Source: a virus
IMG/VR virus record: IMGVR_UViG_3300042888_002988
Location: 1-64,000 of that record
DNA length: 64,000 bases
Strand: one strand, 5' to 3'
Shown piece after piece: positions 28,874-54,940 of the stretch. Position 1 is the first letter of the stretch; each line of letters starts with the position of its first letter. Below the pieces are notes generated by a model. It did not search any database. It saw only the letters and a list, made by a program, of their open reading frames with translations, and had not been told where the DNA came from. The position numbers were made by a program, and so were the translations under genes.

Positions 28874-28927
28874 GTGGTGACTCCTACATGGGATCTTGGG
28901 GTCTAGGTCGACTTCCCCCTGCCGCGC

Positions 28928-29107
28928 TTACGACGCGGGTGTTTCCATGCGGTGGCCATTGGGTAATTGCGGTAGTCGCAATCGATCGGCTTCCTGCTCG
29001 TGCGTCCATCCCCACCCACACCAGTTGCACCACCAGCCATTCGAGCAATCGAAGATCTGGTTGGGGTGCGGCGACGCGCAGTTGGGACATGTAGCGGGAG
29101 TGGTCAT
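28928..29107 (-). CDS. zinc-finger miniprotein inside the tRNA array, 59 aa
   Basis: Minus-strand ATG at 29107, stop at 28928. The product carries CPNC (7-10) and WWCNWCGWGW (24-33), a classic paired C-x2-C zinc knuckle rich in Trp. It lies in the only sizeable gap of the tRNA array and on the same strand as the tRNAs, so it is probably co-transcribed. Alternative frames in the same region lack such a pattern. Function unknown. Confidence 0.65.
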   Translation of the reverse strand: MTTPATCPNCASPHPNQIFDCSNGWWCNWCGWGWTHEQEADRLRLPQLPNGHRMETPAS

Positions 29108-29113
29108 CGAGAG

Positions 29114-53931: not shown

Positions 53932-54159
53932 ATGCCAATCGCCCCGCTCCAACCACGCCTCGTAGGCGGGTTTCCACGCTTCGTTTTCAGTCGTGACGGC
54001 TCCCTGAAGGGGGAAGTCACGTCCACCACCCGCCGCTGCCAGCTGGAAGGCTGCAACGGCAAACGCTTGGGCGTCAAATGGCCCGACGGTCGCACCACGT
54101 ATCCATGCACCAAGGGGCTCGAGGGCACCGACGTTGAGGACACCTGGAAAATCGGATAA
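53932..54159 (+). CDS. small protein with Cys pair, 75 aa
   Basis: The ATG follows aaaccaagtaaaatca. RRCQLEGCNGK ... YPCTKG contains three cysteines in a typical small zinc-finger phage protein. Function unknown. Confidence 0.7.
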   Translation: MPIAPLQPRLVGGFPRFVFSRDGSLKGEVTSTTRRCQLEGCNGKRLGVKWPDGRTTYPCTKGLEGTDVEDTWKIG

Positions 54160-54169
54160 CAACAACAAC

Positions 54170-54282
54170 ACCGGGGAGCCCGCAGGAAGCGGGATAGAAT
54201 CCGAGAAAGTGGGGCCCCCTCGAAAGGACAACGGTCGTAACCAGCCACCCACCTGCAGGTTCGAGTCCTGCCCCCGGTTCCA
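54170..54282 (+). tRNA. tRNA-like element without a clear anticodon arm
   Basis: Acceptor stem ACCGGGG (54170-54176) pairs perfectly with CCCCGGT (54272-54278). A T arm GCAGG-TTCGAGT-CCTGC (54255-54271) abuts it, T73 and CCA are encoded, and a D-arm-like hairpin CCCGC-AGGAA-GCGGG follows position 54178. The element is 113 bases, about 35 longer than a tRNA, and I could not place a 5-bp anticodon stem with a 7-base loop; the interior holds further pairings such as GTGGG/CCCAC. It may be a degenerate tRNA, an intron-containing tRNA or a specialised tRNA mimic. It is on the opposite strand to the tRNA array. Confidence 0.5.
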
Positions 54283-54298
54283 CTCTACACCAACAAAT

Positions 54299-54940
54299 AT
54301 GAAGACCATCGATCAAATCGCATACACCGGCCTCCACTCCAAGGAGGGCAACGCACGCATGACACCCATGAGCAGATCGGAAACCGATCTGTTCCTGAAG
54401 TTGACCATGGGGGAAATGAGCAAGGGCAGCGGTCCGCCCGAAAAAGGCAGCCCTGAGGACAAGCTGCGGGACGAGCTGCTGAAAGAGACGATCACGAAGA
54501 TCATTACGTCACGCATTACAGGTTCGACCGGTCTGCCGTGGGAGGAAGTTGTCAGCTTCTCCGCCCTGGCGTTCATCGGATGCCTCGATGTCATAGAGAA
54601 CCCAGCGCAGTGCGTGCTGTGGGCTTACACACTGGTTTACATGCGGGCCGCCGAAGGTGAGGTCATCGACATGAACCTGCTGGCCCAGTGGTTCCCTGTG
54701 GGCTTCCCGCCGGCGGACTACTACCGTGACGTGTGGGACAAGCAGAAGGGGTATATGCTGCAGGTCGAGAACTGCGACAACTTCCTCGATCGCGGGGAGT
54801 GGTGGCAGGAACTGGCGGCTATCATCAACAAGTCCACGGAGAGGCCCACCATGGGACCGGCCCGTCCGCCAGTCGACACCAGCGACATCGTCGAGGTAGA
54901 TAGCGAAGATGAGATTCACGCGCCGACCCATGAAGCTTGA
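54299..54940 (+). CDS. hypothetical protein, 213 aa
   Basis: The ATG at 54299 follows acaccaacaaat. The longer in-frame extension upstream runs across the tRNA-like element and is rejected. Helical with an acidic C-terminus. It overlaps the next gene by 32 bases. Confidence 0.7.
   Translation: MKTIDQIAYTGLHSKEGNARMTPMSRSETDLFLKLTMGEMSKGSGPPEKGSPEDKLRDELLKETITKIITSRITGSTGLPWEEVVSFSALAFIGCLDVIENPAQCVLWAYTLVYMRAAEGEVIDMNLLAQWFPVGFPPADYYRDVWDKQKGYMLQVENCDNFLDRGEWWQELAAIINKSTERPTMGPARPPVDTSDIVEVDSEDEIHAPTHEA

What the first reader, a model, noticed from the sequence alone, without database searches (positions are those of the whole stretch)
54170..54282. tRNA-like element with acceptor, T arm and CCA but an enlarged interior
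The 7-bp acceptor, 5-bp T arm and CCA match exactly, but 77 bases lie between acceptor and T arm and no anticodon arm is visible. It may be an intron-bearing tRNA, a tRNA mimic that binds EF-Tu or a processing enzyme, or a decaying tRNA. It is on the + strand, apart from the main array.
Basis: seen in the sequence. Interest (0 to 1): 0.75.

Follow-up and report, generated by a model that had tools for sequence, protein, structure and literature searches.

The report
Phage tRNA look-alike lacking anticodon arm
A large bacterial virus carries, squeezed between two of its genes, a 113-base RNA element shaped like a transfer RNA at its amino-acid end but with no recognisable anticodon arm, so it probably cannot read codons and may instead be a decoy or processing signal for enzymes that bind tRNA; this rests on a single sequence and no experiment.

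Summary
The element has a perfect 7-bp acceptor, a perfect 5-bp T arm with TTCGAGT loop, and U73-CCA. The acceptor-to-T-arm gap is 78 nt, not 77. A strict arm scan found no match in 60 Markov copies of the window; in about 2.9 Mb of held sequence, the only match that ARAGORN does not already call is this element.
No anticodon arm is found. A relaxed intron-tRNA fit exists, but 95% of shuffled interiors fit as well. The 61-nt insert folds no better than chance. The region is non-coding and fills the gap between two co-directional genes of a 200-kb phage with multisubunit-RNA-polymerase genes.
No homologue was found. More distant phages sharing its RNA polymerase gene carry permuted, Y-RNA-like tRNA mimics, some beside a Ro60 (TROVE) gene; the window phage has no detectable TROVE and its element is not permuted.
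Best reading: a non-decoding tRNA mimic, RNase P-processed and possibly a decoy (processing and function inferred, about 0.45). Main rival: a tRNA whose anticodon arm was lost in one recombination event.

The parts
54170..54176 (+). acceptor stem, 5' strand ACCGGGG
   Evidence: pairs 7/7 with 54272-54278
54177..54178 (+). 2-nt linker AG (tRNA positions 8-9; canonical U8 absent)
   Evidence: sequence
54179..54193 (+). D-like hairpin CCCGC-AGGAA-GCGGG with GG in the loop
   Evidence: 0.22% of 20,000 shuffled interiors match it; pair probability 0.85
54194..54254 (+). 61-nt insert in place of anticodon arm and variable loop; no anticodon hairpin, folding no better than chance
   Evidence: z +0.15
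54255..54271 (+). T arm GCAGG-TTCGAGT-CCTGC
   Evidence: 5/5 pairs, canonical T loop
54272..54278 (+). acceptor stem, 3' strand CCCCGGT
54279..54282 (+). discriminator U73 and encoded CCA
   Evidence: most of this phage's own tRNA genes also encode CCA
53932..54159 (+). upstream 75-aa ORF (weak coding signal), stop codon 10 nt before the element
54299..54940 (+). downstream 213-aa ORF of unknown function; ATG 16 nt after the CCA; coding signal is strong after this ATG and absent over the element
   Evidence: no PHROG match, no phage homologue by tblastn

Best explanation
A non-decoding tRNA mimic encoded by a large tailed phage. The RNA is made as part of a co-directional polycistronic transcript. 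Its acceptor/T-arm helix of 12 bp with T loop and CCA is the feature RNase P recognises, so its 5' end is cut at A54170; the D-like GG loop can dock with the T loop to build a tRNA elbow. Having no anticodon arm it cannot decode; the released RNA most likely engages enzymes that recognise the tRNA body, and the favoured role is a competitive decoy that an anticodon-cutting defence nuclease cannot cut. Shown: the arms, their improbability by chance, the absence of an anticodon arm, the non-coding intergenic setting. Inferred: transcription, RNase P cleavage, stability, decoy role.
For: Perfect acceptor, D and T arms with CCA, none in Markov controls; D arm at 0.2% of shuffles; anticodon arm absent even allowing excision and intron fits uninformative. 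Arm-intact/anticodon-lost pattern is about 0.001 under a simple neutral point-mutation model. Region is non-coding; the codon signal begins at ATG 54299. Precedents: RNase P processes bacteriophage M3 RNA, phage-derived C4 RNA and pre-tmRNA (PMC11143913); the tRNA-like domain of bacterial YrlA is not cut by an anticodon nuclease and was proposed as its competitive inhibitor (PMC7790460). Phages sharing the RNA-polymerase beta' gene carry tRNA mimics of the permuted Y-RNA kind, and TROVE proteins in large phages are described (PMC7824862).
Against: Single sequence: no homologue in INPHARED, by model in 33 other phage records where the better hits are ordinary tRNAs or other known elements, or by patterns in IMG/VR, so no covariation test was possible. 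A8 replaces U8 and there is no clear A14, so the tertiary fold may not be tRNA-like. The insert shows no structure of its own. No promoter or terminator found near it on the + strand beyond chance. No RNA-ligase, RtcB or TROVE gene was found in this phage, so no RNA-repair context.
Confidence: 0.45

Rival explanations
1. tRNA remnant: a former phage tRNA whose anticodon arm was replaced or interrupted in one recombination or insertion event and which now has no function.
For: Phage tRNA genes turn over readily (general knowledge); the element stands alone, away from both tRNA clusters; the insert is unstructured.
Against: All 17 pairs of the three remaining arms and the CCA are intact; gradual decay is unlikely. 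No parent: the 28-nt 3' half (two positions left open) is absent from 84,980 species genomes, and its only IMG/VR hits are YrlA-like RNAs on two contigs with the same local sequence. The D arm is not a canonical tRNA D arm.
Confidence: 0.3
2. Cis-acting processing element: the tRNA-like fold marks an RNase P cut between two cistrons, separating the upstream 75-aa ORF from the 213-aa ORF.
For: It fills almost the whole intergenic gap (10 nt and 16 nt to the neighbouring genes) of a co-directional run; RNase P processes polycistronic mRNA (a cited reference in PMC11143913).
Against: Cannot be told from the mimic reading by sequence. A hairpin alone would do for mRNA processing; D arm and CCA would not be needed.
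Confidence: 0.13
3. A functional but unusual tRNA with a cryptic anticodon arm or short intron (for example Ser-CGA with a CUCGAAA loop).
For: Relaxed ARAGORN reports tRNA-Ser(cga) with a 16-nt intron spanning exactly 54170-54282.
Against: 94.7% of shuffled inserts give such a fit; only 3 of 5 anticodon-stem pairs; discriminator U73 is not serine-like (general knowledge); no known splicing route for a 16-nt intron in bacteria.
Confidence: 0.07
4. attP core: the 3' end of a host tRNA carried for integration.
For: Other phages do carry T-arm/CCA ends near an integrase (the hit in Microcystis phage Mwe-JY26, lies near one).
Against: The matching 5' acceptor strand is present, which an attP core would not carry; no integrase in the 200-kb record; no species genome contains the 3' half.
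Confidence: 0.02

Closest known systems
Bacterial Y RNA / YrlA (Rfam RF02553), incl. phage copies in L015/L016, L131, L168, L177, L181, L182
   Same: tRNA-like acceptor, T and D arms without a decoding anticodon loop; in some of these phages next to a TROVE (Ro60) gene
   Different: Y RNAs are circularly permuted: T arm comes first and the acceptor is closed by a loop. The window element has normal order with a free CCA; no TROVE gene found in this phage
tmRNA (RF00023)
   Same: tRNA-like end lacking an anticodon arm, with a long insert between D and T regions; RNase P substrate
   Different: 113 nt, no reading frame, no G3:U70 pair, no tmRNA helices; this phage has a separate real tmRNA (L006:13068-13499)
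tRNA (RF00005)
   Same: 7-bp acceptor, D hairpin with GG loop, 5-bp T arm, CCA
   Different: no anticodon arm, no U8, total 113 nt, no score at Rfam or default ARAGORN
Phage RNase P substrates (M3 RNA, C4 RNA)
   Same: phage RNA that is not a tRNA; RNase P processing proposed
   Different: not homologous as far as tested; here a nearly complete tRNA body

Membership tests
functional tRNA | acceptor stem, T arm and CCA | tested here: met
functional tRNA | anticodon arm (5 bp, 7-nt loop, U33) | tested here: not met
functional tRNA | covariance-model score above threshold | tested here: not met
   no RF00005 match at gathering score or listed at E<=10; best related was tRNA-Sec 14.1 bits, E 8.3
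intron-bearing tRNA | excising one segment gives a tRNA better than chance | tested here: not met
   (94.7% of shuffles equal)
YrlA / Y RNA | permuted order T arm - acceptor loop - D arm | tested here: not met
   order is acceptor-D-insert-T-acceptor; permuted scan does not return the window; RF02553 matches only the T arm, 11.3 bits, E 3.56
YrlA / Y RNA | Ro60 (TROVE) partner in the genome | tested here: not met
   none in the 200-kb record; record may be incomplete
tmRNA | tag reading frame and tmRNA model match | tested here: not met
   aragorn -m found nothing in the region; no RF00023 match there
attP tRNA fragment | 3' tRNA half only, with host match and integrase | tested here: not met
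RNase P substrate | cleavage at A54170 | not testable with these tools
   needs in vitro cleavage or 5'-end mapping

The most novel reading that the evidence does not exclude
A phage-made, non-permuted tRNA mimic whose anticodon arm was removed so that it occupies tRNA-targeting defence nucleases or other tRNA-binding factors without being cut: a free-ended counterpart of the permuted Y-RNA mimics found in phages that share its RNA polymerase gene.
Probability: 0.15. Interest if true: 0.75.

Novelty: new variant of a known kind. Interest (0 to 1): 0.45.

Why it matters
Phages are thought to counter tRNA-cutting defences with tRNAs altered in the anticodon loop (PMC10264068). An RNA that keeps the tRNA body but drops the part such nucleases cut would be a different solution and is directly testable with one synthetic RNA. 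It would also fit with permuted tRNA mimics and Ro60 genes seen in other large phages, suggesting that these viruses use several non-decoding tRNA-like RNAs.

Tried and rejected
Intron-bearing tRNA: fits, but shuffles fit equally. Alternative start at 54208 giving a 75-nt tRNA: acceptor mismatch, no D arm with GG, anticodon stem 4/5 without U33 (my reading). ARAGORN low-score calls on either strand: poor stems. Junction of two tandem Y RNAs (as at L168:1487-1601, where Rfam calls a 115-nt tRNA): no T arm lies upstream and no acceptor strand downstream in the window. N-terminal extension of the 213-aa ORF through the element: frame is open from TTG 54134 but codon score is non-coding until ATG 54299. 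attP core. Sister phages: element and flanking proteins gave no homologue at DNA level or by single-protein scans; only an alignment of the RNA-polymerase subunit reached other phages in IMG/VR, mostly about 22-45% identical except a 16-kb fragment at 73%. T-arm hits in other phages checked in part: Bordetella PHB09 is a tRNA-Met in ARAGORN, Vibrio D260 an annotated tRNA, Mwe-JY26 looks like a compact tRNA.

Full report
Setting. The window is bases 1-64000 of a 200,158-bp IMG/VR virus record. It encodes a thymidylate synthase, NAD-dependent DNA ligase, split RNA-polymerase beta/beta'-like subunits and a head maturation protease, so it is a large tailed bacteriophage; the host is not known. It has a tRNA array on the - strand at 28.6-29.5 kb and a second RNA cluster at about 157-158 kb with a true tmRNA (127 bits), tRNA-Met and another tRNA. 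The record has no DNA relative in INPHARED.

The element. Reading 54170-54282 directly: ACCGGGG | AG | CCCGC-AGGAA-GCGGG | 61-nt insert | GCAGG-TTCGAGT-CCTGC | CCCCGGT | U | CCA. The acceptor and T stems are perfect Watson-Crick. Folding gives pair probabilities of about 0.75-0.85 for the three arms, but total energy is not special (z -0.6).

Chance. A scanner demanding the acceptor, T stem, TTCRA loop and CCA found, in the whole phage record, this element and known tRNAs, and nothing in 60 Markov windows, both strands. On 155 held sequences (2.91 Mb, partly overlapping loci, including large parts of seven phages that share the RNA-polymerase subunit) it returned only this element outside ARAGORN calls. 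Dropping the acceptor requirement returned, besides this element, the YrlA-like RNA of L015/L016 and one chance hit in L017.

No anticodon arm. The insert has no 5-bp/7-nt hairpin; no excision of 8 nt or more yields a U33 anticodon arm with five pairs. ARAGORN with introns allowed and a lowered threshold offers tRNA-Ser(cga) with a 16-nt intron, but the same relaxed search gives a full-span fit in 50.8% of whole-interior shuffles and 94.7% of shuffles that keep the D arm. That option therefore carries no information. The insert alone folds at chance (z +0.15).

Not coding. A codon-usage score trained on 16 ORFs of the window is +0.43 on average in frame and -0.60 off frame; the element scores -0.20 at best, and the downstream frame becomes coding (+0.45) at ATG 54299 (that ORF was itself one of the 16, which helps it slightly). 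The element fills most of the 139-nt gap between the ORF ending at 54159 and that ATG.

Relatives. The 28-nt T-arm/acceptor/CCA string (two positions open) occurs in no genome of the 84,980-species collection and in two IMG/VR contigs with the same local sequence, where the acceptor partner lies downstream: a permuted tRNA mimic matching YrlA at 36 bits, below that family's cut-off of 69. Using an alignment of the RNA-polymerase beta' subunit I collected 80 loci of other phages. Several carry permuted tRNA mimics (YrlA 31-45 bits; perfect T arm, acceptor and D arm in L131, L168, L177, L181, L182; also L015, which was found by the pattern), and three with such hits (G006, G027, G028) also have a TROVE match within a few kb; a fourth, G012, has TROVE but no YrlA hit. 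YrlA scores must be read with care: most control genomes also ring below the cut-off, probably because neighbouring tRNAs imitate the pattern. TROVE proteins in a subset of large phages, and their tRNA-like partner in cellular organisms, are described in PMC7824862. A model of the element itself found no convincing homologue in 33 of these records.

Interpretation. The acceptor/T-arm helix and CCA are what RNase P reads (general knowledge; phage RNAs and pre-tmRNA are listed among its substrates in PMC11143913), so processing is the most secure inference. Hughes et al. (PMC7790460) reported that fragments of YrlA were not detected when an anticodon nuclease cut tRNAs and suggested that its tRNA-like domain may inhibit that enzyme; a phage tRNA body without an anticodon arm would suit the same role. 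This last step is inference by analogy; the phage has no detectable TROVE, RtcB or RNA_ligase domain. The rival of a tRNA that lost its anticodon arm in one event remains serious because no sister sequence could be found to test covariation. A toy neutral model disfavors slow decay only.

Verdict. Real and unlikely by chance, non-decoding by all tests made, function unproven. It works, on paper, like a tRNA mimic; it is not a member of the tRNA, tmRNA or YrlA families by their defining features.

Noticed in passing
L131:2000-2180 (G006), L177, L181, L182, L168:1420-1760, L015:1782-1900: Permuted, YrlA-like tRNA mimics in large phages that share the RNA-polymerase beta' gene (L015 was found by pattern instead); three records with YrlA hits also have a TROVE (Ro60) match within a few kb (G006, G027, G028), and L182 shows several permuted T-arm/acceptor structures close together.
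   Followed up: partly
L006:13068-13499 (phage position 157068-157499): A real tmRNA gene in this phage (127 bits). By eye the frame after the resume region reads ANSNEFAMTSAEADALLANGIAAPTGVEAGALAAA*, an unusually long tag; ARAGORN proposes a different one (GPAQDNQCIP).
   Followed up: no
L006:13588-13664 and L006:13695-13765: Two strong rod-like hairpins (z -6.7 and -4.7) between tRNA-Met and the next tRNA, the first ending in GCCA; possibly stable phage RNAs.
   Followed up: partly
L006:13783-13863: A T-arm-like hairpin with a possible acceptor and a long hairpin instead of an anticodon arm; the free fold is different, so it is uncertain.
   Followed up: partly
L006:13879-13958: A tRNA that ARAGORN calls with a four-base anticodon (aaca).
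   Followed up: no
window, start codons of 16 ORFs used for the codon score: Most lack a Shine-Dalgarno-like sequence and several are preceded by A/C-rich stretches (such as CCAACAAA).
   Followed up: no
L163 about 561-638 (Microcystis phage Mwe-JY26): An unannotated compact tRNA-Arg(TCT)-like sequence with a reduced D arm CGA-AGGA-TCG, reminiscent of the AGGAA loop here; by eye only.
   Followed up: no
window 28874-29113 (- strand): A small Cys-rich ORF (MTTPATCPNC..., by eye) lies between tRNA-Tyr and tRNA-Leu of the array.
   Followed up: no
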